DNA of 64,000 nt from the NCBI RefSeq assembly GCF_033568475.1, contig NW_027331831.1:6076001-6140000 (forward strand), in the 5' to 3' direction. The position numbers were made by a program, and so were the translations under genes. This document shows, piece after piece, positions 8,381 to 59,051 of this stretch. The stretch is from Henckelia pumila (lineage: Eukaryota; Streptophyta; Magnoliopsida; Lamiales; Gesneriaceae). Below the pieces are notes generated by a model. The model ran no database searches. It was not told where the DNA came from and saw only the letters and a list, made by a program, of their open reading frames with translations. The first letter of the stretch is position 1. The number at the start of each line of letters is the position of its first letter.

Positions 8381-11002
8381 ATGGAGTCGAATCAGACCGG
8401 AGACAGCTCTAGATCATCACCATCAGCTCCTTTGATCAACAGAAATCAAGAAATATATCATAGGCCGTCGTCTTCGTCGTCCTCGTCGTTGCTTCACGTA
8501 GATCAGCATGTGAATATTATGATAAACAGGGGCGGGGACGTGGACGGGGACGGGGACGGGGACGGGGACGGGGGCGGAGGCGGAGGCGGGCGGAGTAACA
8601 TGATTAGCATTGCGGAGAGGAGGGCAGCGAAATGTGGTTTCAATGTTCGGAACATGAACGTGCAGCCACGATTCTTGATCAGGACCACACACACGCCGCC
8701 GCCTCTGCCGTCGCCGACGGTGCTATGCTCGCCGTATTTCACGGTGCCACCTGGAATTAGTCCCTCCGCCTTGCTAGACTCCCCTGAGATGCTACCAAAT
8801 GCTCAGGTACCATTATGTGTATATTATATTATACCTCTTTTTACATGCATGCACATTACTCCAAACGTTTTAGTTTTAATAAAATTATTATGAGTAAATG
8901 GTATATGCAATTAACAAGATAAAAATTTGTTGAGAGCATAAATCAATCTAGAGCGTTTGGAAAATCTTTTCAAAATTCAGAGTTAAAACGCAAGAAAAAT
9001 CTTTAAAACAGGGCTAATACTTTGGATGAATTTTGTTTATATATAAAAATATATGTAGGGGGCACAACTATCTCCAACAACTGGAACCTTTCAATTTCCA
9101 TCACCAAAGCTCAAATGGACAGTGGCCAACAACAATTACATGAGGCCTCACAACAAAGTAAGTGTATTGTATATGCAACTACTGATTCGTAGCGAATTAA
9201 GGATGCATTTCTGTTGTAATGAAATGGATTGATGGTCATGATATGGCCGATTCTTGGCGAATGCAGGGAGTGGAGGAATACTATGAACAACAACCTGCAG
9301 TGGATTTGCAAGAAAATAAGAAGAAAGAGTGCATGGAAATGAAGCAACGGAAGGGGGCATATTTTCCTAAAGAAGTGACAAGGTCTTCAGAAGATGGGTA
9401 CTACTGGAGGAAATATGGCCAGAAACATGTGAAAGGGAGTGAATATCCAAGGAGTTACTACAAATGCACCCACACAAGCTGCCCGGTCAAGAAGAAGGTG
9501 GAGCGATCCCACGACGGTCATATTACAGAAATCGTGTACAAGGGCTCTCACAATCACCCCAAACCTCTGCCCTTGAAGCGGTTTGGTCATGTGGATGTAC
9601 TTGAGATCAATAATGAAAACATGGGGCTGCTGGATTCATCGGCTGCTCCGAACGGGGTGCACTACTCTTCTAATCCATCCTTTCAGACTAGTTATAGTTT
9701 CAAATCTGATCCCTCCTCCGCTTCCATGAAAGATTTCGAAGCTCAAGAGTTTAATGTGGCCGTGGAGGATCAAGATGTGGAAAGCGCTGAAACCATTTCC
9801 TTCCATGATGAAGACGACGAACACAACGATGAATCTGATTCCAAGAAAAGGTATATATATAGATATAGATAAACCCGAAAACATATGGACTAGCTCGTTT
9901 ATTATACCTTTTAATTTATCGAAAACATGGATCAAACCAAATGCATTTCATTATTGGTATAGGAAGAGGGAGAGCTTTTCGATTGAGACGAACATATCGC
10001 GGTCCACACGGGAGCCACGAGTCGTCGTCCAGATAGAGAGTGAGATCGATATTCTTGATGATGGATACCGGTGGAGGAAATACGGACAGAAGGTTGTTAA
10101 AGGAAATCCTAACCCAAGGTTTGTAAAATTAATATTTCACACATTGCTAGTATATAATATAGTTAGTTTTATCCACAATATGCATGTAATAACTTTATTC
10201 CATTTTCTTGCATTCATACAGGAGCTACTACAAGTGCACTAGCCCCGGCTGCCCCGTGCGGAAGCACGTCGAAAGGGCCGCAAATGACTTGAAATCTGTC
10301 ATTACAACATACGAGGGGAAACATAACCATGAAGTGCCCGTGGCAGCGGCGGCGGCCACGAGAAACGCGGGGGGCACAGGCCTTGTCCTACAAGCTGGAG
10401 ATCATCAGATGCCACGAGCAGCTCCTAACAGCGTTTCGGATTTTGCCACGACGTCTAAGCCGAAACAGGGCGGCAAGCAATTAGTCCAGCAGCATCTCCC
10501 CCCGCCACCAATGTACAACTTCAACAAAACAAAGTCATTCATCTTCAATTACAATGATCATCACCTGATCATGAGGTCTAATTACTCCAACATGGCTTCA
10601 ACTACTAGTACTACACCTGGGAATAATCTCCACAACTTCGGATCTTCGTCGGCTAACTATCCCGTGTCCTTTCCTCCATTTCACTATGGCTCTCTTCTGA
10701 TGAATGGGAACTTCATCAAGAACTATCCCGCCGCCAATTCTACTGGCTTTTACCCCATGACTGGTGGAAATTTGCCGGAATACATGTCGACCATGAATCA
10801 TGTTCAAGCCGCCGGATCAGCCGGCCATGGCGGCAACTTTCACGTCGGAAATTACGGTCATGTAGCAGCTTGTAATCAAGGGCAGGAAATCAGAGAATGC
10901 CATGGAAAAGTTATGAAACCAAAGGAGGAGAAAAGGGATGAAGGTGATCACATATATGATGCTTGTCTTTCCATTCCTAATCATGGTAATGGAATAATGT
11001 AG
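8381..11002 (+). CDS. Group I WRKY transcription factor (two WRKY domains)
   Basis: Five exons (8381-8806, 9059-9157, 9267-9850, 9963-10118, 10222-11002) join with GT-AG borders and unbroken frame to give 681 residues. The N-terminal WRKY domain has WRKYGQK at 222-228 and a zinc site C242-x4-C247-x22-H270-N-H272. The C-terminal domain has WRKYGQK at 407-413 and C427-x4-C432-x23-H456-N-H458. The intron after the PNPR codon of the second domain is the position conserved in WRKY genes. A basic nuclear signal, KKRKR, spans 368-372. Ser-Pro sites at 127, 134 and 147 within the DSPEML...SPTTGTF segment match the MAP-kinase target cluster of group I proteins. The factor should bind W-box DNA (TTGAC core) in the nucleus, often in defence or stress responses. 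Exon 1 carries an odd Gly/Asp tract from a GACGGG repeat. I cannot assign the exact orthologue. Confidence 0.93.
8537..8597. repeat. GACGGG/GGCGGA coding minisatellite in WRKY exon 1
   Basis: Repeated hexamers encode an alternating Asp-Gly run followed by poly-Gly, near residues 53-72. A serine run from TCGTCGTCT-type triplets lies just before it. Low complexity of this sort is prone to length polymorphism. Confidence 0.85.
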
Positions 11003-21672: not shown

Positions 21673-21994
21673 GGTTGTGCTTCGGGTGTGAAAAATGAGA
21701 GTTTTAGTGGACTAAGTAAAAAACGATACATAAATAATAACAAAAATTTGAGGTAGAATACGGCCTAAAACTAACCTAAACTAGATCAGTCCTTGTATTA
21801 ACGTGTACCACAAGTCGCTAATATTGTTTCACGAGCCAAAGTTTCTTCAACATGTGCTGATGTGCAACATCTGTAACAAATTGATAGAAATAAAAGATAA
21901 GTTAATTCTCATAATTAATAACAACTATTGTAGTGAACATTAGCAATGCGTGTGTTATATTATACTAGCCAATGAAGCAAACACGTTATGTGTG

Positions 21995-22097
21995 GGGTTT
22001 TTTTTATTTTTACCATAAATTAAATAATAAATTTCAAAAATAATGTAAAATTAAAATTTTTTTACAAATACCGTAAAACTTCAAATCTGACAGCGGA
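21995..22097 (+). repeat. Left terminal inverted repeat of the MULE
   Basis: This 103-bp repeat pairs with 28792-28894 in opposite orientation. It is AT-rich and ends internally at CTGACAGCGGA. The outermost bases GGG/CCC abut the 10-bp duplication. Confidence 0.93.
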
Positions 22098-23200
22098 TAC
22101 TCAGTACACGTGGGCAGAGTCCGCTAACATTTGGAGCGGATGCTGCTGGCGTGGCACACCCCCACGCCACGACGCAGCATCCGCTCCATTATTGATAATG
22201 GACTGCCCCCACCCACATTATCAGTTTTTTTTTTTTCTGAAATCCTCCATTGTCTACAGCACTTCTTCTCTCCTTATCAATTTTTGTTTCTTTAACATTA
22301 GATTTCTCCATCATCGTTCCTCCAATTACAAATTCGAGAGTAGTTTCGGAATCCTTACAACGAGAGGTTTTTTTTTACACCAATTTTTTGAGTTTTCTTC
22401 GCCGTATCGAAAACATCGTCCGACCACAGGTGGAGCATTTTCACATCTTCCATCACCGCCGATCGTTGTTCAAACTAGCAAGAAGATATTTTGGTTGGTT
22501 GGAGCTCTATTTCAAAATTAAGGTAAATTCGAGATTAGGGTTTTTTAATTTGGGTGTTTTGGTTTAATTGAGTTACTATAATTGAAATATGTTTAATTGT
22601 TGGTTGCAGGTACTAAAAAAAGCCATTTGAAGGTATGGATTGTTTTTCAGAATTTTTTTAAGCATTATTTTGATTTTTTGAGTTTATTTTAATAATATGT
22701 TTTAGTATATATTTCAAATTTCTTCTTTTTTATAATTAACTATATTATATTAATATAATAAAAATTAAATGTATTAATAATAAAAATAGTTATGTTACGT
22801 TAAGTGTTGTTATTATTATTATTTTAATCTTATAATATATATAAATATAGAATTATATATATATATATATATATATATTAAAATACTAAAAATATATATA
22901 TATAAACTTTATTATTGTTATTGTTATTATATTAGATATATACGCATGTGATATTACCTTATTATTGATATACTATATAATATAGATTATTAGATTGAAA
23001 TATATATATATATATAAAAAAAAAATTTATTGTTATCGTTATTATATTAAAAATGTGCAATATATAGACATATATTGTTATATGCATAGATTAAAATTTA
23101 TTTTATTTTATTTTATTTTATTTTTATGTTTTGTTATTTTGTAATTTTATAATATGTGTTTATTGGTTTGCATTATATAATTGTTAGTATATTTGTCAGG

Positions 23201-25336
23201 ATGACAACAAATCGAGGGCCAATAGATTCCAGTGTGCTATATTTACAAGCCACACATATGTCGTCAGAAGTTTCCACAATAACAATTGATGACATAGTTC
23301 GAGTCAAACGATCCGATAATTTGATTTGGCAGTTATTTAATGAGCATGGTCTGCACAGTCGTGTGATTGCATATTTAAATAATATGGGGTTTTATGGTGT
23401 TTTGTTGTGTGGATCTCGGCAATATGATAATCATTTAATTACTGCTTTGGTTGAACGATGGCGACGTGAAACACATACCTTTCATTTTAGATGTGGTGAA
23501 GCAACCATCACTTTACAGGATATTTCCATTATTTGGGGTCTACCTATTGATGGTGAGCCTGTAATTGGTATAGATGTTTCACGCAAAGTTGAAGAGTGAC
23601 AGCATATATGTTTGGATTTATTGGGATTTACGCCACTGACGTCGCATTTCAAAGGTGGTCACTTATCGATGACCGCTTTATATGAGCATTGCATGGCTGC
23701 ACATATCGATGATAATAGTCCAGAAATAGATGTCGTAAAATATACCCGTTGTGTAGCATTAATGATTATTGGAGGAATCATGGTTCCAGATTATCAAGGA
23801 GGATCTGTTAAATTGATTTTTTTGCAACTACTTCGGGATATTGAACGCATCAGATCTTATAGTTGGGGAAGTGCAGTTCTAGCATTCCTATATCGTGAGT
23901 TATGCAATGCAACACGGATAAGAAAAGCTATAATATCCGGGCCTCTATTTATCCTACAGGTATAAATTTTTAAGTTCACCTAATATCACATTATAATAAT
24001 TTATAATTTAATTTATTACTGATGGCAGGTATGGGCATGGAGCAGGATTACATTTGTTAATCCTGATATAAATGGATTATCTCTGACTGTGCCTCAAAAT
24101 AAATTCGAGAAAGATATTTCATATGCTCCTTATGGTGCACGGTAATATTTGAAAAATATTAGCTTTTTATAAATTACAAATTCATTTTGTAATAATTTTA
24201 ATAATCTTTTTTTATTGTAGGTGGTCAAATGTGTTTAGTTACACTCATTCACCAACGCACGCTGTTAGAATTATAAGGGATTGCTTCGATCGTATGACTA
24301 ATGCCGAGGTGTGTTATTGGATTATTGAAATTTAACAGCAATTATATTAATTTATATTTATTAATTAAAAATGATTTTATTATTATTATTATGCAGTTTA
24401 ATTGGATAGTTTACAACAAGAGATGTTAAAGCGATTATTAGTACATACGATAATAGAATCTGGAGATGTGTTTGTCCTCTGATTTGTTTTGATATTGTGG
24501 AGATGCATCGTCCTGATCGGGTCTTGAGGCAGTTCAAAATGCGACAATCTATTCCTAGGCCTGCACTTGACAACGATAACCTACACAATGTTAATAGAAC
24601 AGGTCATCGCAACACAGATTGGAGAGAGTATCATAAAGATGCAATTATTCTTTGGAATGAAAAATTGAGTAATGTTGCCCGAGGAGAACGCTACAGAAGA
24701 TCTAGGGAAGTCGATGATGATTACTTTCCATGGTATGATCGCATTACTGTACGATTTATATCGCCTGCAGTAACTGGGCTTGGTGTTAGGCCATATCAAC
24801 CGAATTTAGATATTGGTAGACACAGTAATATTCCACAAAATTTTAGTGTGTCATACTCTGATTCGCATCAGTCATCATCAGGGTTTGTTCCTCCTCGTCC
24901 ATCTGGTGAGTTCTACAACGCGGGTCCATCTGGTGGGTTCTACAACGCGGGTCCATCTGGTGGGTTCTACAACGCGGGTCCATCAGGTGAGTTCGACAAC
25001 GCAGGGCCATCTAGTGGGTTGTACAATACCGGACCATTCGGTGGATTTTACGGTGCAGGACCATCTGGTTCATATGTTGATGCCGGTTATCATACTCCAT
25101 TTTGTGAAAATATCCAAAGTTTTACAGATCTGCTTAATACTGGTCAACGCAATATTCTGGCTCCTGAAAGAAACGTTCCGTCACCTGTAATATTCCCTAG
25201 TTATTCAGATGAGCAACAAGAGAGGAGTGAAGAAATTGTTGATGCTCCTGTTGTGCGTAGAGGACAACGTAGACGTAGACCACCTGCTTGTGGTACCGGT
25301 GGTTATTTGTATAACTGCAATTGTCATGAACAATAA
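23201..25336 (+). pseudogene. Plant mobile domain (MAIN-like) protein gene inside the MULE
   Basis: The PMD signature is clear: LYLQATHMSSEV near the start, WRRETHTFHFRCGEATITLQD, then IWGLPIDGEPV, and later VEMHRPDRVLRQF. Proposed exons are 23201-23959, 24029-24141, 24221-24308 and 24397-25336, all with GT-AG borders and matching phases. Two lesions are visible: an in-frame TGA at 23597-23599 where the family has Trp, and exon 4, whose length is one base out of frame near its 5' end (about 24405-24440). The C-terminal part contains a nine-residue PSGGFYNAG repeat and ends in a basic segment followed by CGTGGYLYNCNCHEQ. Family members act in transposon silencing and gene regulation in Arabidopsis (MAIN, MAIL1), but copies inside MULEs have no proven role. 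This copy is probably non-functional. Confidence 0.88.
24896..25076. repeat. 27-bp coding minisatellite of the PMD gene
   Basis: Roughly six or seven units of the type GGTCCATCTGGTGGGTTCTA encode PSGGFYNAG. The first units are nearly identical and later ones diverge, which is usual for an array growing by slippage or unequal exchange. Confidence 0.85.
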
Positions 25337-25716
25337 TGATATTTTTTTTTTGTGTTATAGTAATTGATAATTAGTTATGCATGTGATTTTTTTTTTCTTT
25401 CCGTATGAGTTTTTTTTTTATTACACCACAATTATTTTAAATACTTTATTAAGTTGATTCAAACAAATATGAAGAAAAATGCTAGTAGTGTAATAGATCA
25501 ATGCATTTAACCAATATCAAATACATATCTTATTCAATGCATACATTATATGACACAATTATAAAAACGCATATGCTACCAACAAACATTTATTTGTTAT
25601 ACATTTTTCGTCAAGCAATCAATTGTCCACGTTCATCTGATGCTCCTGAAAAAAAAAATAGACATATACAAATTAAAATATATTACAAGACATATTTTTA
25701 GGAACAAATTAAATTT

Positions 25717-28320
25717 TCAAAGTTTATACCTGTTAGTTCTTCGTTGTTGTCTCTCTCTCGCTACCGGCATGTCTATCTCGTTTCTTAGTCGAGTCGTTGT
25801 ATCCCTACCTGCTCTTCTTCTTTCACGTCTAACTGGGTTGTGTTGCAACTCAAAGGTAGGACGATCCCAATATCTTTCATCTGCAAGAGGTTCAAATCTT
25901 CCTTCATACGTTGCGAGGTACTCTGATATATTGTATCATGGCTGCACAAGTGTCGTGGGATCTAACGAGTGCCATTTAGCGGTGCAAATAGCATGAGAAC
26001 ACGGGATGCCGAAAATTGTCCATTTACCACATGAACAATCTGTTGTTGATATTCTCACCACTTGTATGTGTTGGCCGCGACTTGGCCTTCCTCCGGTCGC
26101 AACCTGAGCAGTTTGTGATCGTACATCATATTTAACAACACGATGTTCACTAGATTTCTTTGCCCATTCCTCATACTTTCGCCGTGCATAATCCGACCAC
26201 AATTGATTTTCTTGAACCATACGTTGACCTTTTGTCACACGTTCAATGAAGTATTGGACACATCTCAGAAGGGTCAAGTGTACTATTGCAGATATAGGCA
26301 GTCTACGAGCTCCCTTTAACACACTGTTTAAGCACTCGGACATGTTGGTCGTCATCACTCCATGACGCCAACCTCCGTCATGGGCCATACTCCATTTTTC
26401 CTTTGATATTCCATCCAAATATCTGTGTGCCAAAATATTTTTGTTCTTAATTGCCTCCATTGTTGCATCAAATTTACAAATTTGATGTTGACTACCTGCT
26501 TCCCAGCACAAATCTTTCAAATGCACATCTTTGAACCTGAAATTAAAATTTGAGTACACGTGCCGCAAACAAAAACGATGCACACCTTGTGGAGGTTTGA
26601 AATAAGGTAGATCTTAAACGGCTCGCACGATTTCCTTGTGCCTATCAGATATTAGACACACACCATTTTCGCCACATACAACATGCCGTCCAACATTTTC
26701 CAAAAACCACTTCCAGGAATCAGACGTTTCTTCATCGACAATTGCAAAAGCCAATGGTAGAACTTGATTGTTAGCATCGAGAGTGACAGCGATCAACATT
26801 TTGTGTTTGTACTTTGTGTACAAATGTGTACAGTCGACACTAATGATTTTTCGACAGTGTCGAAATCCATTAGTACACGGCTTGAACGCCCAAAAACAAT
26901 AGTTCAATGTTTTTATTTTTTCATTGTTTCTGAGATGCTTCCAGTCGACAATTGTTCCAATATTGTATTTGCAAAGAGCACGCATATATTTTGGCAGTAA
27001 TTGAACAGAGCTCTCCCAAGTTCCATAAACAATTTCCACTGCACGTTTCAGACTCCGCCACGCCTTCGTATACGAGATTTGATATCCATATTTATCTTTC
27101 ACACTCTCTATTATATATTTAATCTAGTACGAAGGATCACATCGTACAATGCCCAATAGTGTATGTGCAACCATATCACTATTCAAGTTATGATGATCTA
27201 TGCCGACGTTGGTTGATATACATGTATGAGGCCCACCATATCTGGTTATTTTCCAATAACCTGTTTTCTCCTTGAAAGATGCGCGAAGACCCCAACGACA
27301 TCTGACGGTGGAAGAATCATTTTTGCATTGAATTTTCCACAAAATGCGTGTGCTCTCAACAACAAGATATTCACGCCTAGAAACTCTGACCGAATAATCC
27401 TTCACAGATGCAATCAGATCTTTTTTATCCTTGAAAACCATGTTTACACATAGTTCTCCTCTCTCCTCATTATAGTATCTTGTCCGCATGTCATGAGGTA
27501 CGCCAATAGAATCAGCAATCTCTTCTCCAAAATATGTATTAAAGAAAGATGGTATATCAGAAGTGGTAGAAAAGAAAGGAACATCTTGCCTCTGTAATTT
27601 CTGACGAGGTGGTGAACGAGATGATGTTCCCTCATCAGTATTTGCATGGATATTCACATGTACATCATCATTCACATCTTCAACATCGTCATCATCTTCT
27701 TCCTCAGACTCCCCGTATGACATCTCTGGCTCTGTATCGCTTATCTGGACATCTTCGTTTTCACTCCTAGGATCATCAACACGTGGCACAAAGTTTTGAA
27801 TTTCTGAATTCCAATTTGCTTCACCATAATTTTGTTCCCAAATACGTGTACTTTGCGGCCAACTTGCAGGATCAGGTTCTGATGTGCCGGCGATATATTG
27901 ATCCCACGATCCACTTTCAGGATAAAGATACATGTTGTCCATTCCTTCGGTGACGTGTAAAATATCCGATTCTTGGTCGACATGACCAACGTGATGGTCA
28001 ATTTGGTTTGCTTTCACGTACAAATGCAATATACGTATATTGGGAGATTGCATCATAAACTCTAAAGCGTTGTCATCGACAAGATTGACTTGAATTTCAT
28101 GCCAAGATGAATTTTCCATGAAAGAATATTTCGTTGACAATTTGAGAGTAAAAGTAGTTGGATCAATCCTCAATATTTGATGCACAGCTTCAACCAAATC
28201 GGACAAAGTAATGGTACGTAGAACTCGCATCGGTCTAGTATAAGGAATACTATACACAATCGATCCACTATCCACAATAATATGACCACTAAAATATAAA
28301 AATATTTCAATGTTTTCCAT
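25717..28320 (-). pseudogene. MuDR-class (MULE) transposase
   Basis: One continuous minus-strand frame of about 867 codons starts at the ATG of 28320. It carries three in-frame stops (TAG 27126-27124, TAA 26616-26614, TGA 25938-25936) and no frameshift. An acidic linker (about residues 190-230) follows the N-terminal region. A MuDR-type domain then has the CRWGLRASFKEKTGYW and GPHTC motifs. The MULE catalytic core has SVDCTHL with D496 and LISDRH with D559; I did not assign the third acidic residue. A SWIM zinc finger, CSCGKWTIFGIPCSH, lies at about 762-776. The enzyme would cut at the element's own terminal repeats. Because of the stops, this copy should not make a full protein. The C-terminal end may instead continue through a small intron near 25730. 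Confidence 0.9.
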
Positions 28321-28439
28321 TCTCGATATATTTTTTTGAAAAAAAAATGAAAAACGGATAAAAGAAAAGAGAAAATTTTAAAGAGTTTAATATTTGTATG
28401 AGTGATATCCGAATAACATTTGTGAACATATATATATAT

Positions 28440-28585
28440 ATAGTAATACAATTACGCGTAGAATTAATTGTTTACGCGTTAAATTAATTCTTTACGCATT
28501 ATATAATATATTTAAAAATTTATTACGCGTTCAATACGCGTTATATAATATATTTAAAAATTTATTACGCGTTCAATACGCGTTT
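28440..28585. repeat. ACGCGT-containing tandem repeats in the MULE right flank
   Basis: Two near-identical copies of about 46 bp (TATATAATATATTTAAAAAT then TTATTACGCGTTCAATACGC) lie at about 28500-28582. Further TTTACGCGT words occur upstream at 28452-28497. They lie in the promoter side of the transposase gene. Confidence 0.7.
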
Positions 28586-28634
28586 TTTTTAATTAAGTCA
28601 GTGTTAGATGATTTAAAATAAATTTAATTCTCCA

Positions 28635-28785
28635 CCTAGGCATAGCGTCCGCGCTCCGTGGCGGAGGACGCTGCCTATTGCGCCCCGTGACGGAGGACGC
28701 TGCCTATTTGGCAGCGTCGTGGCGCGGACACTGCCTATTTGGCAGCATCCGCGCCTCGTGGCGGAGGACGATGCCTACGTGTAAA
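28635..28785. repeat. GC-rich subterminal repeats of the MULE
   Basis: Four imperfect units of the form GTGGCGGAGGACGCTGCCTA sit just inside the right terminal repeat. Related words (GGAGCGGATGC, GCAGCATCCGC) form a smaller palindromic cluster inside the left end at 22105-22190. Subterminal arrays of this sort are often transposase or methylation targets in MULEs; that role is inferred. Confidence 0.7.
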
Positions 28786-28791
28786 TGAAAG

Positions 28792-28894
28792 TCCGCTGTC
28801 AGATTTGGAGTTTTACAGTATTTGTAAAATTTTTTTAATTTTACATTATTTTTGAAATTTATTATTTAATTTACGGTAAAAATAAAAAAAACCC
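28792..28894 (-). repeat. Right terminal inverted repeat of the MULE
   Basis: This is the inverted partner of 21995-22097, differing by a few substitutions. GTTATGTGTG follows immediately at 28895-28904. Confidence 0.93.
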
Positions 28895-28904
28895 GTTATG
28901 TGTG

Positions 28905-30914: not shown

Positions 30915-33900
30915 TCATGGCAATTTTTGAACCTCATTTTCCTCTAGACCACAAGTCGCCTCGTTTGCTTCGGATGAAGAATCAGCAAGAAATTCTGATC
31001 TCAACTGCATCAACAGCCTTCCGAGATAGTTTAGCCCTTCGCCATCTCGACCTCCACCCCAAAACAGATCATGTGGTGAGGCTTCAACAAGGACTGATCC
31101 AGCAGTTGAGAGTAACATCGCGGTTAAATCAGGATATGTTGAAAACTTGCACTTCAGGGCCCTGTACATTACATTGATCTTGATAGATTCCCAATCAGAT
31201 CTCACCTGCATGGCACATGAGAAGTTGGATCAGGCAGGTCACTCCTCGAGCCTACACAAGCGTCAAGCGAGAATAATCGTCTCTGCTAGAAACTAATTCG
31301 AACCCATTCCCACTTTACAAGTATGATTAACCAAATTGTTAAAAAATTATTGTAAAATCTCAATCTCAATCTCAATCTCAATCTCAATCTCAATAATGGA
31401 TGCAAGACTGTATATCAGAAGGAATTCATCTAAACACAAGCAGATGTGCTTAATCATCGACATTCAAGAGCACCTTTGTACGACTAGCATAAAATCATGA
31501 TGGATTTGGTCAGGAACCTATGAAAATGCTTCTCTCCATATATCAAAAGGAAAAAAATGCTTCTCTCCAGAGTTTTTGTATTCTACCCAAATGGCCAAAT
31601 CATTCATACTAATCAAAAAGTCTCACAAACCAACAAATGAAACTGGAAAAAAGAATCTATGACCCATGTTAAACAAAAGTAACTGAAACTTGATACACCA
31701 TGATATAACAAGGTCATATCCATAAAGAGAATTGTAGAAAAATTTCAAATGGGAATAATAGATGTAAGGTTTTTCACACATGATTAGGTTTGTATCACTA
31801 AAAAACCAATCATTGTAGATTTCACCATTTTCGGTTCTGAAATCCAATAATGATAATAAAAAAATCTCATGGCAGAAATCTCCGCGTCATCAGTTAAAAT
31901 AAGAAAAAGTGTATTCATGCTAGCACCAAATGTCCAAGGTAACCAGGGTCTTTAAGTGATACCAGATCAGGACATTGCCTCTGCATTTTTCTTCCTAGTC
32001 GTGCTGCTTCCTCGGGACTTTTAGCATTTTTTATGTCTTCGATGCAGTTAATTCCAACTGGATCATCTACTCTGACAAACTTATGTGCCTACAACTCAGA
32101 GAGACTTAGCAACAAATCTACAGAAAATGTGTGGGAAAATTACTGTAGCTATAAACCAAGAAAGAGACCTGGTAATAGTGTTCCACGCTTTGCCATGTAG
32201 AAAAATCACCATTTTCACCAGCCATTTGAATTGGATGCAAAGAGAAGTTTGAAAAGGCACCGTAAGGATCCCAAGTTTTGTAAAAGAATATGATGCTTGC
32301 TTCATAAGGAGAAACAGTAGGATCGATCACAGAAGTTTCATCTATAGATGGAATCACAGGTGCTAAGTCAGGAACTGGGTGAAGAAATCCACTTACAAGC
32401 ATGTCAGGACCAATCTGCAGTTCATGCATCAAACACAAGGGGCTATTGTAAAAGGGAAAAAAAATATAATCCTCAATGGAAAAATGTACTTGAAGGGGTA
32501 GTCCATGTCTGCTTTCTTCACACATCCATATTTCAGAAGAGGGTTTATAAAGTCATTGTCATAAACCAGCTAAAATCAAGACATAATCAGAGAAGGAAGC
32601 TCACATAATGTTGATAAAGTCATGGTTGCAAAATTTTCTCTCCTTTTCAGTAAAGCGGAAAGGAAAAACTAACATTCAATTGTATCAGAAATATCACGGA
32701 CCTGCTCATAATGAACATCATTTAATTCCAGTGCCTGAGACATCTCTACCATCCCAAGTTCTCCAACGGGTGATGGTGCATTTTTCCCACCAATAATTTT
32801 AGGGGCAACAAAGGCATGCACCTGCATCAGCATAAAGCATGTAAAAGCTGATAATAAATAGAAAGACACTTGTGATTTATTGATGGGACTATGTTCATGT
32901 TAGTAAAACCTAATGCATTCACATTCTATAATATTCGAGAAACCGGAAGAGCAAAGAGAAGGAGTCTGGTACGGGCCTGGAAAATCAGGACCATTCTTTT
33001 AATGGGTAACTTGAGTAAGGGGAAAGAGGAACAGATATATAAGGGAGAGTTGGTTATGGGAAAGACATTCTAGCAGATTGTTTGGCTAGGGCAAGGAGGG
33101 AGAATGTCTTCCTTCTTGTAAAAGGATTTAATCCTGGTTGGGTGTTTCATTCAGATTAATTTTCTTAGTGAATCGATCTATTTTCAGCTTAATATGCTGT
33201 TCGTTATTTTTGGTTTTCGAATGTTCGGAAATTTTGGTCGTATCAGATACCAAACAGAAAATAAAAAAGGAACCTGCACTCATGTGAAGATGGAAAAAGG
33301 GCAAAATCCAGAACTGGGCAAAATTACGAGTTTTAAAAATTATATACAAGGATACAGGATTTGCACAACTAACATTCACAGTAAAAATAACAGGGATTGG
33401 TCTATAACTGATGTCTATAAATCTCAAAATCGGGAGGTAAAATTCTGCACCAATGCCTTCTGACAACAGAGATTAAATTGAAACGTTATAGAGCTGGATT
33501 AACTGGACATACCTTGTGTATAACACCATGAGAAATGGCAGATGCAGCCAGCGTACCTCCGCATTCCCATAAAATCGAAAGACAACCACGATCGTATAAA
33601 TAATCCATTACGACTTTGGGATTTAAAATTTCAAACTCAACTACTTCAACACCCTTTGATGCAAGAAATTTTTGGAAACTCCTCCTTGCACCTCTCTGTG
33701 TTGCAACCATGGTGGGAACTTCACTAACATCCCACAAGTATGCAGTCTCAGGAAGATCAAGAGACGTAGACATTACAATCCGTTGGGGAAAATGTCCACC
33801 TCCATGTCTAGCCGTCAAACGTGGATCTAAATTTCAAAGTTGAATTAGAACAGGAGTTTGATATTTCAGCATCACAATCCATCAAAAGCTAACAGCCATG

Positions 33901-37834: not shown

Positions 37835-40800
37835 CTCTCCCTTGTGATGATGATCATGATAGAATGACTATCTCCATTACGTGTTGTATACTGCCTCGTT
37901 AAAAACCTTACTAGGAAAAACCCATTGGGACAAAAACCATAGTAAGGAAAAAAGAGTGCAGCCACGTAAACTCCACCTGATGTCAACATGAATGATTCTT
38001 CACATATTTCGTAGATTGCGCATCCCAATATTATAAATGTGTTTTCTGAATATCGCCGTGGAAAGTGCCTTTGTGAAGAGATCGGATGAGTTCTCACTTG
38101 ATTGAATGTAACAGATATCAATATCTTTATTCTTCTCCAACTCTTGAGTGTATGCAAAGAATTTAGGAGGAATATGTTTAGTTCTGTCACTTTTGATGTA
38201 TCCTTCTTTCATTTGGGCAACACATGCGGCATTATCTTCATACAGTGTGATTGGATTCTTGTCCACTGATAATCCGCAAGAAGTTTGGATATGCCGAGTC
38301 ATTGATTTAAGCCAGACACATTCACGGCTTGCTTCATGTAGTGCAATAATCTCGGCATGATTTGATGAAGTTGTAACAAGTGTTTGTTTCTGTGATCGCC
38401 AAGAGATTGCAGTGCCTCCACGAGTAAATACATATCCGGTTTGGGAACGTGCCTTATGTGGATCAGATAAGTATCCAGCATCAGCATAACCAATTATTCT
38501 CTGATTTGTATCTTTTGGATACAAAAGTCCCAAATCCGTCGTTCCTCGTAAATAACGGAATATATGTTTAATTCCGTTCCAGTGCCTCTTCGTTGGACAT
38601 GAACTGAATCTTGCCAATAAATTTACTGCAAAAGATATGTCTGGTCTAGTGCAATTTGCAAGATACATAAGGGCACCAATGACACTTAGATATGGTACTT
38701 CAGGACCAAGAACAACTTCATCATCTTCACATGGACGAAATGGATCCTTTTCTATATTCAATGATCTGACAACCATTGGAGTACTTAAAGGATTTGATTG
38801 ATCCATATTGAAACGTTTAAGGACCTTCTCTGTATAATTAGACTGGTGAACAAAAATTCCACATTCTTTTTGTTCAATTTGTAAACCAAGACAATACTTG
38901 GTTTTTCCAAGGTCTTTCATTTCAAATTCTTCCTTCAAGTATAACATCACTTCTTGAATTTCTTTATTCGTTCCAATGATGTTTAAATCATCAACATATA
39001 CAGCAATAATCACGCATCCCGATGTTGTTTTCTTGATGAAAACACAAGGGAATATTGGATCATTTACATATCCCTTTTTCATCAAGTGTTCACTTAGCCG
39101 ATTATACCACATTCGGTCGGATTGCTTTAACCCATACAATGATCTTTGTAATTTCACAGAATAAAATTCTCTGGGTTCTGAACTTTGTGCTTCTAGCATC
39201 TTAAATCCTTCAGGGATTTTCATGTATATATCACTATCAAGTGATCCGTATAAATAAGCTGTAACAACATCCATTAGACGCATGTCCAAGTTTTCAGACA
39301 CTGCTAAACTGATCAAATACCGAAACGTAATTGCATCCATAACAGGAGAATATGTTTCTTCATAATCAATTCCAGGTCTTTGAGAAAAACCTTGTGCAAC
39401 AAGTCGAGCTTTATATCTCACTATTTCATTTTTCTCATTTTTCTTTCGAATAAAAACCCATTTGTACCCAACAGGTTTAACACCTTTAGGTGTAAGGACT
39501 ATAGGTCCAAAAATACTACGTTTATTTAGCGAATTTAATTCAACCTGGATGGCATCTTTCCATTTTGACCAATCCTTTCGAGTTTTGCATTCACCAAAAG
39601 ATTTTGGTTCATTATCTTCATTTACGATGTCACATGCCACATTGTACGAAAATATCTCATCAATATCTTGTACATTCTTTCGGTTCCATATTTTTCCAGT
39701 ATTAATATAATTGATAGAGATTTCATGATTCTCGTCAGTTTGTGGTTCTGACAAAATATTTTCATCATCGTGTGTTTCTTCTGGAACACCATTTTCTATT
39801 TTCTGATCATCATTTTTCTCTATGTATTTTCTTTTCCGAGGATTTTTATCCTTTGAACCGATTGGCCTTCCACGCTTCAGGCGTTTTATGACATCATGAA
39901 TGTCTTCATTTTGTTTCTTTGGAATTTCAACTCGAGCAGGGGCATTTACAGCAGGTATATATGATTTTGTTACCCCTTTTGTGTCTGCAAATGCATCTGG
40001 CATTTGATTTGCTATTCTTTGCAAATGCACAATTTGCTGTACATCTTTATCACATTGTTTAGTTCTAGGATCCAAATGTAATAATGATGGTACATACCAT
40101 GTGATTTCTTTTTCGATGTGTTTCTTTTCTCCCCCTAACATTGGGAAGTTATTTTCATCAAAATGACAATCAGCAAACCGTGCTGTAAACACATCGCCTG
40201 TCTGAGCCTCAAGATATCTAATGATTGATGGACTATCATAGCCGATATAAATACCATTCTTTCTTTGAGGTCCCATTTTTGTTCTTTGAGGTGGTGCAAT
40301 AGGCACATACACCATACATCCAAAAATTCTCAAATGAGAAATATCTGGTTCTTTGCCAAATACAAGCTGCAATGGGGAGTGTTTATGATATGCACTTGGC
40401 CTGATGCGAATCAATGCAGCAGCATGTAAAATTGCATGTCCCCATATAGAAATAGGGAGTTTCGTTCTCATAATCATTGGTCTAGCAATCAACTGCAGAC
40501 GTTTAATCAATGATTCAGCTAATCCATTTTGTGTATGAACATGAGCTACAGGATGTTCAACAGTAATTCCCATCGACATACAATAGTCGTTAAAAGTCTA
40601 GGAAGTAAATTCTCCAGCATTATCAAGTCTTATTTTCTTGATCGTATATTCGGGAAATTGATTCCGCAATTTTATTATTTGAGCCATCAATTTTGCAAAT
40701 GCCACATTCCGAGTGGACAATAAACATACATGTGACCATCTGCTAGAGGCATCGATCAATACCATAAAGTATCGAAATGGTCCACATGGTGGATGAATTG

Positions 40801-43089
40801 GCCCACAAATATCACCTTGAATACGTTCAAGAAATATGGGTGATTCCTTTTGGATTTTAGCTGGTGATGGTCTTATAATAAGTTTCCCCAGAGAACATGC
40901 TTTACACTGAAACTTATTATTCTGAAAGATCTTCTGGTCTTTCAGTGGATGACCACTTGTATTTTCTATAATCCTTCGCATCATTATTGAACCAGGATGT
41001 CCCAATCGATCATGCCAATTTGTTAGTATTGAAGAATTTCCAATAACCATATTTGATTCGATTGGACTTATATGTGTATAATGCAATCCAGTAGGGAGCA
41101 TTGATAATTTCTCAACTACATATTTCTTTCCTGATTTATATGTAGTAAGACACATATATTTCTCATTTCCTTCGGTTATTGTTTCCGTATCATAACCATG
41201 AGAATATATATCATTAAAACTCAACAAATTTCTTTGTGATCGTGGTGAATATAAAGCACTATTTATAAAAAATTTTGTACCATTAGGTAACAAAAATTGT
41301 GCTTTGCCACATCCTTCAATCAAGTCTACAGGACCTGATATTGTATTCACCATTGTTTTTGTTGGTTTTAATTCCAAGAAATATTTTTCATTTCTGAGGA
41401 TAGTGTGCGTTGTACCACTATCTGGTATGCAAACTTCCAGTGCATTATTTCCATCTTTGATCATAGCATTTTCCATAATGATCTTCAAAAACAATATGCA
41501 ATAAAATCAATTAAGAAAGATACATGCAAATTATAATATGTTATAATTTAATTGCAGAATAAAACAATACATGCAAAATATAATATGTTTTACAATATAA
41601 AAATTACATTGTTACATTCTTTTCCCACCAGTACATTTAATCAATATCTTCGAAATCATTCAAAAAGTAGGCAGCATCTAAATTCATTGAACCACTTGCA
41701 TGGTCAATATTTTCAGTAAAATTGGTCTCTTTTTCTTTCCCCTTTATTGAATCTTTATAGAGCTTACACAGATGCTCAGGGGCTCGACAAGTTCTTGACC
41801 AATGTCCTGGAGTGCCACATCTATAACAAACACTCTCAGTTCTTTTTGGATGATTTTTATTTTCACCCGTATTATCATGCTGCCTCTTTTGTGGGTGGTT
41901 CGTGACGTTCCTTTGAGATGAGTTATTGAAATAACTATCTCTTTTATTTTCAAATCCACGGCCTCGACCACGACCGCGATCATTTCTACGCCCACGTCCA
42001 CGCCCACGTCCTCGTCCACGACCTCGACCAAAATCTTGTCTATATCTTTGATTTTGGTTTTCATTTTTACTTACGACATTTGCTTCAGGAAATGCCGTTG
42101 AACCAGTAGGTCTGGACTGATGATTTCTCATGAGCAATTCATTATTCTTTTCCGCCACGAGTAAACATGCGATGAGTTCTGAGTATCTTGAAAATCCACG
42201 CACTCTATATTGCTGTTGTAGAGTTATATTTGATGCGTGGAATGTGGAAAATGTCTTTTCAAGCATTTCCATCTCAGTAATATTATGCCCACAAAATTTC
42301 AGCTGTGAGACAATTCGATACATCGCAGAATTATAATCACTCACCTTTTTAAAATCTTGGAATCTTAAAGTATTCCATTCATCTCGTGCGGTCGGAAGTA
42401 TAACTTCCCGTATATGCTCAAAACGTTCTTTTAACCCTTTCCACAAAATCATTGGGTCTTTTTCGGTCAAATATTCACATTTCAACCCCTCATCAAGATA
42501 TGTAAAAATATCATCGCTTTTGCTTTATCTTGTGAGGATGATATGTTATTTTCTTTGATAGTTTCGTTAAGACCCAATGACTCGAGATGCATTTCTACAT
42601 CGAGGGTCCATGGCATATAATTCTTTCCGGTTATATCAAGTGCAATGAATTCGAGTTTCGCCAAGTTCGACATGGTGGTACTAGAAAATAACAATGCATT
42701 TTATTAGTTAATTTCCATAAATATGACAATACAAAATAATGGAAGAACGTAAATTACAAGTGCGTATACAAATAGAGAAAAAATATGTGTTGGAAAATCG
42801 CTGGTGAGTAAAAGACTCGTGAGCATGATGATCATAGTCGTTATGAAAAATATCCTTATAAATGTCATCATCTCCATCTTCGAAAAAACCGAGGATAAAA
42901 TATTTTGAGAGAAAGAATGAATTTGGTGTGATTGAAAATGAGTTTGAGTGAACATATTTATAGGGCAAAAACTAGCCGTTTTGTTACCGTTTGTGACCGT
43001 TGGGGGTAAAGAAAAAATTGAGTATGTGTTGAATAAAAATTCGTGATAATCATGTAATGCATATAATGATAATCATAATTAAATAATTA

Positions 43090-51200: not shown

Positions 51201-54200
51201 ATGCTAATGTGCAAAATTCAACAGGGCATACAAACCATTCGTGTCCCGATTTAGTCATTGAAAAAGGAAACATACAAATAAGTAATAATGTCACGTACTG
51301 ATTTGGCACAAGTTTTGTTCTATTCACTTTTGGTTGCACCACTTCTCCAATGGCAAATATGCCACCTCCCTTGTGGCTCAAGCAATGTGAAAATATCCTT
51401 TTCACCTTCCCAGAAGAAGCAAGCTGTGAAAGGATGGATGTGTTTGCTTGTCCAAACCCAATTATTCCATCAAGTGCCACAGAAGACGAAGCAAATCCTC
51501 CAGATTGTTTACCTGAGCAACTGTAGAAAATCATGAACAAGTGAGATGCATAGAATGCACAGCAGATGGGTTTGTGCGAACTGGCATGGTAAAATTATAA
51601 GAAGACACTTAGGTTGGCTTTGAGTTGTAGGATTTAAGTGGATTTGATTTCAAATCCACATTCGTATCCATTTGGCTTTAAATTAGGATGAAGGATTTGA
51701 AATTTCTTGTGTTGTTTAAGTACATTTTTGCTTTAATTTCAAACCCACTATCTAACTTAGTTATTTGAAATCCATGGATTCAAATCTTTTTTGATTTGAA
51801 ATCCTCCCACAAATTCAAACCATTCCATCCAAACACAACCTTACGGGAAAACGTCCTACAAATCCAAATCCTTCCCTCTATGCACAATCTCAGGAAAGAT
51901 TCATTTTGAAAATAAGCACATATCACAAACAATAAAGATTAACAACAAACAGGTTAAATTACCGAATAATCTCAGCCACTCAATTCATATCTCAGATAAT
52001 CCTAAGAAGTTGGCAAAATAAATCCACTTTAGCAACATTGCATAAAAGGTAAACATAAATGAAAGGCAACGATGAAACATTAAATATGCGCAAAAGCCTG
52101 TTCATACCAAAAGAAGAATGTCGGCTTCTATCCAAATTAAATTACAAGTAATTTAACATAGAATTCCAGTCTTTCATGTGGAAAAGATAGGAATTCTATT
52201 AGCATCGGTCGTGAGCAGTGTTCTAAATAACGGTCGAGGCAGCCGCCTAGGCGGGAGGCGGCCATCGACCGCACCGCCTTTTCCCAAGGCGGTTATGTAG
52301 GCGGTCGAAGTTGAGATGGGGCGGGCGAGGTAGGTTTAGGTGGTCAAAAAATCAATAAAATTTAAAAATCCTACTTTAGTATTACATTATGCACCATCTC
52401 TCTTCAGAACATAATAGCCAACCCAATCATTCACAAGTGCCACAAGCCCTACATTCTTCTGCCTCAAACCCGTCGGCCAACCCACTAGATTAGAACTATT
52501 ATCACATTAGTATGTTACATTTTTAGTATTAATATGGTGATGAATCTTTATTTGTACCTTGACTAAATTGTATGAAGATTATCTATGCATAAACATAATT
52601 TAATTTATGCATATATTGCATTATTATATATAATTAGATATAAAAACAGTATAAAAAATTCAACCGCCAAGGCGGCCAAGGTGGTAGGTGGTCACTGACC
52701 GCCCCGCCACCGTCTACCGCCATTTACAACGACGGTCGTGAGAATATACGTGGAACAATCATAATATATGATCTCGATGCCTTAAAAGAGCATGGATTTA
52801 TGAGCATGAGCATTGCTCTCGTGTTCATACTGGTGGTTTAACTATGTTAAGTATATGTCTCATGCAACTTTTTTTCAAGTGTGAGCACGAGTGTGCATGT
52901 GATATTGCATAAGAATGGTCACATACAAAGCCTAATCTTAACAAATTTGTTCCCTTCTTGCACATAAATAAAAATAAACCATGGATCCTATGATATTGCA
53001 ATGAATGTCCAGAAAAATGAATATCGATAACAATTTAACAAGTCATGAAAGCTCATGCATAACTTCAAATAATGCAGTGTTGGCATCAATTGAAACACTC
53101 AGTAAATCTATCACGCAATCATATATAATATGTCACCGAAGGGAATACTTAACATAAGGTTTGCTTAAACAAACACAACCCCACCCATCTACCTAACTGG
53201 TGGGGGAGCACCCAACGGGGGTGACGGAGGTGTCTGGAATTGAATTACTTTATAATGTTTCCAATTGTCTATTGTTTTTGTGACTCGTCTAGTTTAAGCA
53301 TGTGAGCACAAGGTAATCGCATGCACGTGACTCGTCTACCTATGACATTTTTTGTGCTCCATTAGGTCTTTCTTTTTTCAACTCTCTGTGTTAATAGATG
53401 AACGACAAAAGGGATGGAGCAATGGAAGTAATGATTTAAATAATATCAACGGGCGAAGTATTTTACATTTTGCTTCAAACATAATCCACTTGAGATACTT
53501 GGTCATCATCATGTTTGTGGTTTACTGATTTTTCATGTTCACATCTTCAGTAAAATAACAAGAAAAAATAAGATGTTTTATAGCATCAGATAAACTATTC
53601 GATGTTAATACTATTGCCTACAGCACTAATACCAATGGCCCCAAATAAAGACGATACATATTATTTGAGACTTCATGTTCACGTCTTCAATAGCACTATT
53701 TGATGCTAATACTATTGTCTACAACATTAATATCAATGGCACCAAATAAAGGAGATAGCCAATCATTGGAAACAGAATCTAAAACAACGACCATAACCCA
53801 TATGTTATATGAATTTCTAAGGTTCAAACTTCAAAGCTTTGTAAGCAATAATTTTAAACTATCTCATACAAAACTTGTACCCACCATTACCTTGTTACAC
53901 CAAATTATTAACTCAAAAGCTACACAAATACAATATCGTCCAAAACAATCAATTATATGTGGATTGAATAGACATTTGTATGCTTAATACAAATTAAGGA
54001 TTGATTCCATAAATGTTAACTTGTCATCTCAGCTTGCATGTCGCCAATGAAGTGCTAGGTGCTACACCAGTAATCAGTTGTGTGAATGACTTGCACATAA
54101 ATGATATCTTGAGAAGGTTCAAGTCACTGGTTAATGTATTAATAATATCTCAAATTCAAGTACTGGAACCAATTCACCGAGAAACCTGACAACAGACTAT

Positions 54201-56235: not shown

Positions 56236-57325
56236 CTCCACCGCCAAAAATTGTGAAATAAGAAAATTGTAATAAAAACTGAAAAAAAACCCAACTTAAG
56301 TGAATGAATACAACTCTTATTCGAAGAAGACAAATTTTGTTGGGATGGAAACATGAAAAATTCGTCAGCATTGTCTTGTTCTGGACTCGGTGCATTAATG
56401 TTGGCAGGAGACGTGAACTGAAAACGTGAGAAAGGGCTAAAAAGGGATTAAACCAGGAAAAGGGGTCAAAGAAGTTGGCTTAAATTGCTTAAAAATTGCA
56501 ATGTTAGAAGTGATTTCAAGATTCTTTAGGTCCAAACTAAAATTCCAGGAAACACAATAACAATTCCACCCCCACATTATGAAATAAGCCCTTTTACCTT
56601 TCTCCCTCAGAAAAGAAGGAAGCTGTTGCGTCAGCCATGAATGTTACCGCTGTATGTATCTGCCATGCATTCTGTCGCGTTCTTTAAGCTCGCTCTGACT
56701 CTGCACTGGGATTCCCATCGTTTTCGTATTCACCCGCAAGATTTTCCCAGAAACGTAAATAATATCACAAAATAATTACATTTCCTAATTCTTAAAAGAA
56801 AGGAACCGTGGACTGGAACTCCCATCGTTTACATTTCAACAGCAATTTTTTTTTCCAGAAATCTGTTTCCTGTAATACACCAAAAAAGGGTTTATGATCA
56901 TAATATTTTTTAATTAAGTTAATATTTAAAAATAATTATTATATTTACTAATTCTGAAAAGTAAAAGGAACCGAGATTAGTAAACCCGGCGCCTTGCATA
57001 TATTTCTTTTTTTTTTTTACAGTATTATATTTCTTTTTAGAAAAGAAAAAAAAAAAGTTGAAATATCGTCATCTTCGGCTCCATCCATTGAACAGGAACT
57101 GCCGCAGTTGCCGATATTTGCTGTGCATGTACAAGCGACTCTTCATTTAGCTTTGGCTTCAAGGTTCTCATTCTCTGTTCAGAGATTGATTGTACTGGTG
57201 AGTGGAATTCCATAATGTTTTTCAAGTCGTGGATACGAAGAGTACATTCATCGAACACGTAGTTTGCATTGTGGGAGCGTTTGGTCAAGGACTTGCACCT
57301 CCAATATCGTCACATTGCACCAGGA
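56236..57325. promoter_or_regulatory. Shared upstream region of divergent protease and PRORP1 genes
   Basis: The two start codons are 1,090 bp apart and face away from each other, so both promoters must lie here. No clear TATA element is seen near the PRORP1 start. An upstream stretch (57035-57325) is open and may be leader. Confidence 0.6.
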
Positions 57326-59051
57326 ATGCTCCTTCGCATGACTTCTTTATCAGCTAAAGCCTCTCCTCTTCTTTCCCTTTTCTCCAAAAACTCTGTTTCA
57401 CTCTGTTCCCGCCCCGGAAGCTTCAATTATCTGTTCCACTACTGGCCCCTGATGCCTATTTCGTTCAATGCCAAAACCCAACAAAAATATCCCTTTTTGA
57501 TGGCGAGAAAAAGATCCCATTTTTCCACCACATCAGCTGAAGCCCTTGTCCAAGAGCAGACAGATTCGGGCACTCGAAGATCCAGGAAAAAGGCTATTCG
57601 GGAGTCCCCAGATATGATTCTGCGTGTGAAACTGGATCAGTGTTCCAAGAGCGGTGACTTAGCAGAAGCCCTTCGTCTCTACGATGAGGCGATAATCAAC
57701 AATGTTCAGCTGAATGTGCATCAGTACAATGTCTTGCTTTATTTATGTTCGACAAAAAGTGATGGTGTTGGGGAGGATGGAAGGGATGTTTTAAGGTTGG
57801 AAAGAGGGTTTGAGATTTTTGAACGGATGGGCACTGATAATGTGTTGCCGAATGAGGCAACATTTACGAATGCTTCAAGATTGGCAGCTGCCAAAAATGA
57901 TCCTGAGCGGGCTTTCACTTTAGTTAAGAAAATGAAGGCAAATGGTATTGTTCCGAAGTTGAGGTCTTATGGGCCAGCTTTGTTTGGGTTTTGTAAGAAG
58001 GGGATGGCTGATAAGGCCTATGAGGTAGATTCTCATATGATAGATAACATGGTTTTGGCTGAAGAGTCTGAGCTTTCAGCACTGTTGAAAGTTAGTTCTG
58101 AGGCTGAGAGGGAAGAGAAAGTGTATCAAATGCTGCATAGGTTGAGAGCGGCAGTGAGACAAGTATCAGAGGAGACTGCTGTGGTGGTGGAGGATTGGTT
58201 TGGGTCCAAGAGGGCAGCAGAAATTGGGTTGGAGAAGTGGGATTCAGAGAGGGTGAAGAAAGGGATTGTAGAGGGAGGTGGTGGATGGCATGGTCAAGGG
58301 TGGTTGGGGACAGGAAATTGGAGATTGTTGAGGACCTCGATGACCAATACCGGGGTTTGTCAGTCATGTGGGCAGAAGCTAGATTGTATTGATATCGATC
58401 CTAGGGAGACAGATAATTTTGCAAAGTGTTTGGCTGATTTGGCTTGCCAAAAGGAAGCTAGAAAAAACTTTGTGCAATTTCAGGTATTGACTTAGTATTT
58501 GGTTTCCATGGTTAAGACCTTCTGAAATCTGTGTTGTGGGTGTGGAATATATAGCATTTCTTCATCTGAAAATTGTAGGATTTGATATGACTGCTGACTT
58601 TGCTTGATGACATTTTGAAACAGTACTGAGTTTGAAAAGAAACGAGATAATCTCTCGGTGTTTGGATGGTAAATTCTATAGGTTATGGTGTCTGTCTTAT
58701 AATCATGGCAGGCCATTTTTTGTTTATAATAAGAAACTGAAATAAGATGACTCAGGCATCACCTGCTGTTATTAATGATGTAATCTGACAACTTCATTGT
58801 TATACTGGAAAAGGTGCAATATTCAACTTAGGCTAAGCATTTAACAACAAAGATTTCGAGCGTAATCTTGTGTACTGGTACAGGAGTGGCTTCAACAGCA
58901 TGGTCCTTTTGATGCTGTAATTGATGGTGCAAATTTGGGACTTGCTAATCAACATGTTTTTAGTTTCTCTCAGGTAAGTATGAAAATTGACTCCCATCAT
59001 CGCTTGTCCTTTCTAATAGACACAATTAGGTGTGAAGTTATGAGACTTGTG

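What the first reader, a model, noticed from the sequence alone, without database searches (positions are those of the whole stretch)
21995..28894. Mutator-like transposon with its own transposase and a PMD gene arranged tail to tail
The sequence directly shows 103-bp terminal repeats, a perfect 10-bp duplication, a MuDR-class transposase on one strand and a plant mobile domain gene with introns on the other. PMD proteins of the host (MAIN, MAIL1) act in transposon silencing, so a transposon that carries one may interfere with, or mimic, that silencing. PMD-MULE association is known, so the class is not new; this copy, its layout and its lineage may be. This is my best candidate for an unusual system in the window.
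Basis: partly seen in the sequence, partly recalled or inferred. Interest (0 to 1): 0.7.

Follow-up and report, generated by a model that had tools for sequence, protein, structure and literature searches.

The report
Dead copy of two-gene plant transposon
This is a recently dead copy of a young plant "jumping gene" family that carries two genes, its own transposase and a relative of plant gene-silencing proteins; the layout is already described in flowering plants, but why the second gene is kept is still open.

Summary
A 6,900-bp Mutator-like element (MULE) lies at 21995-28894 with 103-bp terminal inverted repeats (94%), a perfect 10-bp target duplication, a SWIM-type MULE transposase on the minus strand and a four-exon plant mobile domain (PMD) gene on the plus strand, tail to tail. 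Correction: both genes of this copy are broken (transposase: three in-frame stops; PMD: one stop plus an 8-bp deletion). The same 885-Mb genome holds a young family (mean DNA identity about 98.6-98.8%). PMD sequence lies behind at least 26 of the 31 best-scoring left ends; both genes are fully open in 3 of 24 copies read. Small deletion derivatives lack PMD. The layout is not new: Dupeyron et al. 2019 list antisense PMD for most members of plant MULE group "MUDR", and Ikeda et al. 2017 already suggested anti-silencing. Possibly new, and only suggestive: a tandem ACGCGT array upstream of the transposase in 13 of 13 copies examined, variable repeats in the PMD tail, and a weak DUF1985 match. All three recall the VANC anti-silencing system. 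Verdict: new member of a known kind.

The parts
21985..21994 (.). left target-site duplication GTTATGTGTG
   Evidence: identical to 28895-28904
21995..22097 (+). left terminal inverted repeat, 103 bp
   Evidence: 94% complementary to the right one; scored at 40 places in the genome
22105..22186 (.). left subterminal GC-rich region; 22105-22146 is 74% complementary to 28742-28783
   Evidence: by eye longer in the sister copy L027
23201..25336 (+). PMD gene, 4 exons (23201-23959, 24029-24141, 24221-24308, 24397-25336); pseudogene in this copy (stop at 23597-23599, 8-bp deletion in exon 4)
   Evidence: Pfam PF10536; splice borders in copies and open frames of 626/635 aa in sister copies
23597..23599 (+). 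in-frame stop, PMD codon 133; present in 7 of 21 copies
24897..25026 (+). 27-bp (9-aa) tandem repeats in the PMD C-terminal tail; exon-4 length varies between copies by multiples of 27 bp
   Evidence: exon-4 lengths
25717..28320 (-). MULE transposase frame, 866-867 aa in open sister copies; three in-frame stops here (27124-27126, 26614-26616, 25936-25938)
26548..26847 (-). MULE transposase domain PF10551, placed by collinearity with L027 residues 492-591
   Evidence: and for the window copy itself
25987..26055 (-). SWIM zinc finger PF04434, placed by collinearity with L027 residues 756-778
28454..28583 (.). cluster of six ACGCGT motifs, partly in 42-bp tandem repeats, in the non-coding DNA upstream of the transposase
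28651..28708 (.). right subterminal GC-rich 29-bp tandem repeat
28792..28894 (-). right terminal inverted repeat, 103 bp
28895..28904 (.). right target-site duplication GTTATGTGTG

Best explanation
This is a full-length but dead copy of a young two-gene MULE family. SHOWN: long TIRs, 9-10 bp target duplications, a SWIM-type MULE transposase and a convergent four-exon PMD gene; a star-like family with mean DNA identity 98.6% (transposase) and 98.8% (PMD gene); copies in which both genes are open; deletion derivatives with both ends. INFERRED from MULE biology: open copies make a transposase that acts in trans on the TIRs, so broken copies such as this one and short derivatives could move with them; later mutation then broke both genes here. 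INFERRED and uncertain: the PMD protein is a retained helper that lowers host silencing of the family, either by competing with host MAIN/MAIL1-type PMD proteins or by acting on the element's own transposase-side control region. My probabilities: dead copy of a two-gene MULE family 0.95; PMD is a useful helper rather than idle cargo 0.65; the help is relief of silencing 0.45.
For: TIR and TSD. Domains. Family copies with both genes in the same convergent order. PMD fully open, with ATG, stop and GT-AG borders, in 5 of 21 copies that have PMD sequence; transposase open from ATG to stop over 866-867 codons in 7 of 21 copies aligned; both open in 3 (L009, L027, L031) of 24 copies read. Star-like tree with mean terminal branch 0.0059 per site over 16 copies. 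Derivatives L013, L014 and L033, which lost most of PMD but keeps an open transposase. For a helper role: PMD behind at least 26 of 31 left ends; strong domain match, L027 exon 1 E 1.3e-43; the repeated antisense association across plant MULE groups in print (PMC6446971); the role of host MAIN/MAIL1 in transposon silencing and the authors' own suggestion (PMC5418596).
Against: No selection on PMD could be shown. Singleton changes are N 91, S 15, stop 7 in PMD (16 copies) and N 122, S 45, stop 12 in the transposase (17 copies), against neutral expectations of about 0.72/0.22/0.06 and 0.69/0.23/0.08; PMD singletons have, if anything, fewer silent changes than expected. Shared PMD changes (N 12, S 7, stop 1) lean silent compared with singletons (Fisher p 0.024, one of two such tests, n = 20), which is too little to rest on; the transposase shows no such lean (p 0.70). 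Seven of 21 copies share a PMD stop, and L013, L014 and L033 show that a copy can lack all or most of PMD and keep both ends. The 31 left ends are the best-scoring part of 199 candidates, so the 26 of 31 may be biased towards young full copies. No expression, small-RNA or methylation data were available.
Confidence: 0.55

Rival explanations
1. PMD is passive cargo: a captured host gene that hitch-hikes because recent amplification came from a few PMD-bearing source copies, with no benefit to the element.
For: Neutral pattern of singletons, a shared PMD stop in 7 of 21 copies, and derivatives that lost PMD.
Against: A 626/635-aa, four-exon frame with strong domain matches is still open in 5 of 21 copies. 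The antisense PMD recurs in several plant MULE groups (PMC6446971). Inference: a cargo gene would be expected to decay before the transposase.
Confidence: 0.25
2. PMD has a VANC-like role: a sequence-specific protein that binds the tandem ACGCGT array upstream of the transposase and removes silencing there.
For: ACGCGT sits 3-7 times in the right non-coding stretch of 13 of 13 copies examined (of 24 read), never between the gene starts, and 0 times on the left in 12 of 13 (2 in L031). All six sites of the 64-kb window lie in 28454-28583. None of 2000 shuffles of that stretch reaches six; the largest is 3. Part of the array is a 42-bp tandem repeat. PMD has a variable repeat tail and a weak DUF1985 match (E 0.008 and 0.014). 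VANC proteins carry DUF1985 and tandem repeats, and their motifs are tandem arrays in non-coding DNA, also upstream of the transposase VANA (PMC5735166).
Against: DUF1985 is far below its cut-off (16.6 and 15.8 bits against 35.1). The motif was chosen after it had been seen. The copies share recent ancestry, so 13 of 13 is not 13 independent observations. The whole-window count (6 against 2.67 expected, reached by 4 of 100 shuffles) is not striking; only the clustering is. The motif could be a transposase or host-factor site. No binding data.
Confidence: 0.12
3. PMD works in transposition itself, for example as a DNA-binding or integration cofactor, like mudrB of maize MuDR (said to be apparently required for integration).
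For: Two-gene MULEs with such a second gene exist (mudrB, as told in PMC6446971); PMD is a separate gene facing the transposase.
Against: No sequence link between PMD and mudrB was tested; L033 lost most of PMD but keeps both ends and a target duplication, though PMD could have come in trans or the loss could be later than the insertion.
Confidence: 0.13

Closest known systems
MULE group 50 'MUDR' (also groups 47-49) of Dupeyron et al. 2019, PMC6446971, Table 1
   Same: Flowering-plant MULE, SWIM finger, TSD 9-10 bp, TIR 30-320 bp, 'PMD in antisense for most of them'
PMD-C MULEs of grasses and Amborella, Ikeda et al. 2017, PMC5418596
   Same: PMD with a MULE transposase in one element; authors suggest anti-silencing
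   Different: They describe fusion proteins; here PMD is a separate convergent gene. The PMD clade was not determined
VANDAL21 (Hiun) with VANC, Hosaka et al. 2017, PMC5735166
   Same: MULE with an extra gene; tandem repeats in the protein; motif arrays in non-coding DNA
   Different: The extra protein is PMD, not DUF1985/DUF287; only a sub-threshold DUF1985 match; no function shown
Maize MuDR (mudrA and mudrB)
   Same: Two genes, transposase plus a second protein (PMC6446971; convergent order recalled, not from a call)
   Different: mudrB is not a PMD protein (recalled)
Host MAIN/MAIL1 proteins
   Same: PMD domain (PMC5418596)
   Different: Host genes that silence transposons; no direct sequence comparison was made here

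Membership tests
Mutator-like elements (MULE) | long terminal inverted repeats | tested here: met
   103 bp, 94%
Mutator-like elements (MULE) | target duplication of 8-11 bp | tested here: met
   10 bp here; identical repeat of 9 bp or more in 17 of 18 copies with both ends, 0 of 306 control pairings
Mutator-like elements (MULE) | MULE transposase domain, here with SWIM finger | tested here: met
   PF10551 and PF04434 over cut-off in the window copy and in L027
Autonomous element | open transposase in this copy | tested here: not met
   three in-frame stops; 7 of 21 copies aligned are open
PMD family PF10536 | match above the Pfam cut-off | tested here: met
MULE group 50 MUDR (Dupeyron 2019) | position in the transposase tree | not testable with these tools
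   no reference transposases at hand
MULE group 50 MUDR (Dupeyron 2019) | TSD 9-10 bp, TIR 30-320 bp, SWIM, antisense PMD | tested here: met
   against the table; these features also fit groups 48 and 49
PMD-C clade (MAIN/MAIL-like) | position in the PMD tree | not tested
   PMD places were listed but the request for short regions did not complete (and repeats)
VANDAL/VANC | DUF1985 above cut-off in the extra protein | tested here: not met
   16.6 and 15.8 bits against 35.1
Pack-MULE | carries captured gene pieces and no transposase (definition as told in PMC6446971) | tested here: not met
   a transposase gene is present, though broken

The most novel reading that the evidence does not exclude
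The MULE-borne PMD protein is a second version of the VANC system. It is a distant relative of the DUF1985 part of VANC, it reads the tandem ACGCGT array beside the transposase promoter, and array and protein tail change together by repeat gain and loss, so that each family frees only its own copies from silencing.
Probability: 0.1. Interest if true: 0.75.

Novelty: new member of a known kind. Interest (0 to 1): 0.27.

Why it matters
Antisense PMD genes are reported in several plant MULE groups (PMC6446971), while the papers read call the PMD a domain whose function remains to be determined (PMC5418596, PMC8616336). This family has young copies with both genes open, copies that lost PMD, and a motif array beside the transposase. 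That makes the published guess of anti-silencing directly testable: compare methylation and movement of PMD-plus and PMD-minus copies, and test PMD binding to the array.

Tried and rejected
Rejected: 'autonomous copy' (both genes broken here). Rejected: stop codons as signs of a wrong gene model (sister copies are open with the same splice borders). Rejected: Pack-MULE. Rejected as proof of selection: the singleton/shared comparison, since counts are small, the tree is star-like and many shared sites are homoplasious. A PDB sequence search gave no useful relative for PMD exon 1 (two weak light-harvesting hits, E 0.12 and 0.19) and none up to E 1 for the transposase. No structure was predicted.

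Unexplained: the PMD stop at codon 133 is in 7 of 21 copies and needs 6 steps on the 16-copy tree, the most of 366 variable sites; the next most homoplasious site lies 60 bp away. Hot spot, gene conversion or repeated loss are all possible. Three transposase stops are each shared by 2 of 17 copies.

Not done: dN/dS between diverged PMD families, a PMD tree with host MAIN/MAIL genes, and co-location of transposase hits with PMD hits (the genome machine did not answer); a DUF1985 search for a profile-profile comparison (planned, never sent).

Mistakes: the PMD exon-1 query was out of frame by one base, so only the DNA matches are used for PMD. The notebook entry places one transposase stop three bases off; the coordinates in 'parts' are the right ones.
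Full report
OBSERVATION. The window (64 kb, 35% GC) holds a 6,900-bp element at 21995-28894. Its ends are 103-bp inverted repeats, 94% complementary, flanked by a perfect 10-bp duplication. The minus strand holds a MULE transposase frame (PF10551, SWIM) and the plus strand a PMD gene (PF10536); they face each other tail to tail.

STATE OF THIS COPY. The transposase frame 28320-25717 runs through three in-frame stops at codons 399, 569 and 795 before its normal end. The PMD gene has four exons; splice borders are GT-AG in 15 of 17 copies examined (one further copy has two altered borders, one lacks the region) and in L029, L031 and L032. Here it has a stop at codon 133 and an 8-bp deletion in exon 4 that 15 of 15 other copies aligned there lack. 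This copy can make neither full protein.

FAMILY. The genome (885 Mb, 133 contigs) gave 40 scored places for the left end out of 199 candidates, so what follows describes the best-scoring part. I count 31 of the 40 as first ends of separate copies and 9 as second ends. I read 24 of the 31 (plus the window). PMD sequence is present in 21 of 24 (not in L013, L014, L030), counting partial copies (L033, the third tandem copy) and one split by an insert (L019_20). Transposase sequence is present in 23 of 24 (not in L030), counting mere fragments in L014 and L017_18. Of the 7 not read, 5 have a PMD match within about 2 kb in the PF10536 list, which itself is cut short. So PMD lies behind at least 26 of 31 left ends. 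Among 18 copies with both ends, 17 have an identical flanking repeat of 9 bp or more when small offsets are allowed (only L032 does not; it has one mismatch), against 0 of 306 pairings of the left flank of one copy with the right flank of another. Three copies stand in a tandem array with about 8.45-kb spacing.

OPEN COPIES AND AGE. PMD is fully open, with ATG, terminal stop and GT-AG borders, in 5 of 21 copies with PMD sequence (L009, L023, L026, L027, L031). The transposase is open from ATG to stop over 866-867 codons in 7 of 21 aligned (L009, L010, L025, L027, L028, L031, L033). Both are open in L009, L027 and L031. Mean pairwise DNA identity is 98.6% for the transposase and 98.8% for the PMD gene over 17 copies each. 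The tree is star-like with mean terminal branch 0.0059 per site over 16 copies. With recalled plant rates of about 6.5e-9 to 1.3e-8 per site and year this is roughly half to one million years.

SELECTION. Singleton changes look like neutral decay in both genes: PMD N 91, S 15, stop 7 (16 copies); transposase N 122, S 45, stop 12 (17 copies); neutral expectation under the same mutation spectrum about 0.72/0.22/0.06 and 0.69/0.23/0.08. PMD singletons are poorer in silent changes than expected (0.13 against 0.22). Shared changes are few: PMD N 12, S 7, stop 1; transposase N 28, S 12, stop 3. Singletons against shared: Fisher p 0.024 for PMD and 0.70 for the transposase, uncorrected. I rest nothing on this; the family is too young. 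The row L015_16_12c was dropped from the PMD count because of its internal deletion. The five later loci (L029-L033) were not in this count.

A STOP SHARED ACROSS BRANCHES. The PMD stop at codon 133 occurs in 7 of 21 copies and needs 6 steps on the tree. This is unexplained; it says at least that copies unable to make full PMD are common.

NON-CODING FEATURES. Between the transposase start and the right TIR lie six ACGCGT sites within 130 bp (28454-28583), the only ones in the 64-kb window (the whole-window count of 6 against 2.67 expected is not striking, the clustering is). In 2000 dinucleotide shuffles of that 471-bp stretch the largest count was 3; the motif had been picked after it was seen. 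The 13 copies examined, of 24 read, have 3-7 sites there, none between the gene starts, and none on the left except two in L031. The array is partly a 42-bp tandem repeat. The PMD tail has 9-aa repeats of variable number. PMD exon 1 shows a weak DUF1985 match (E 0.008 and 0.014, below cut-off). VANC proteins carry DUF1985 and tandem repeats, and their target motifs form tandem arrays in non-coding regions, also upstream of the transposase (PMC5735166, passages). The likeness is a lead, not a test: the copies share one recent ancestor.

WHAT IS KNOWN. PMC6446971 (passages and the first of two parts of section 6) lists PMD in MULE groups 42 and 45-50 of flowering plants: antisense in 42, in most of group 50 MUDR, often in 49, sometimes in 47 and 48; for group 45 VANDAL 'PMD and/or DUF in half the members'; none for the MUDRAVI sub-group of 50. 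Group 50 has TSD 9-10 bp, TIR 30-320 bp and SWIM. PMC5418596 (passages) reports PMD-C fused to MULE transposases in grasses and Amborella and suggests anti-silencing; PMC8616336 (passages) repeats the idea. PMC7156037 (passages) says eudicots contain mainly genic PMD-C. PMC10673657 (passages) reports 175 phased small-RNA loci at PMD genes in tea. PMC13317346, a 2026 review of gene capture (passages), has no mention of PMD by the terms searched. PMC9899485 and PMC4583175 were seen in one passage each. For the PMD-DUF1985 likeness I made one search (four papers with DUF1985 and transposon, titles and starts of abstracts seen, one of them also read in passages); I did not see it stated.

THE WIDER GENOME. 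PF10536 gave 152 matches with 117 of 588 candidates scored, so PMD genes are abundant; most of these were not assigned to an element. Two full single-exon matches in tandem on C1 (101379429 and 101385076) are candidates for host or Gypsy PMD genes. The plant was not identified.

VERDICT. A real, well-read element; a new member of a known kind; dead in this copy, with open sisters. Its worth lies in making the published anti-silencing idea testable.

Noticed in passing
38003-42524 (-): Copia-type retrotransposon remains: RVT_2, integrase (below cut-off) and gag_pre-integrs matches in separate frames (the frame 41640-42524 was not scanned).
   Followed up: no
9201-10999 (+): WRKY gene with two WRKY domain matches.
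   Followed up: no
57263-58492 (+): Protein-only RNase P-like gene (PPR_long strong; PRORP below cut-off).
   Followed up: no
33489-33833 (-) and 54142-54660 (-): RibD_C match and a TAXi_N (aspartyl-protease-like) match; the MULE sits among host genes.
   Followed up: no
23597-23599: PMD stop shared by 7 of 21 copies across several branches, the most homoplasious of 366 variable sites; the next one lies 60 bp away.
   Followed up: partly
L015, L016, L012 (C2:151823150-151846400): Three family copies in tandem with about 8.45-kb spacing, apparently a segmental duplication.
   Followed up: partly
L033: Copy with an open transposase, both ends and most of PMD deleted: a natural PMD-minus version.
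   Followed up: partly
G000:C1:101379429-101380505 and 101385076-101386155: Two tandem full-length single-exon PMD matches, the best in the list, perhaps host MAIN/MAIL-like or Gypsy.
   Followed up: no
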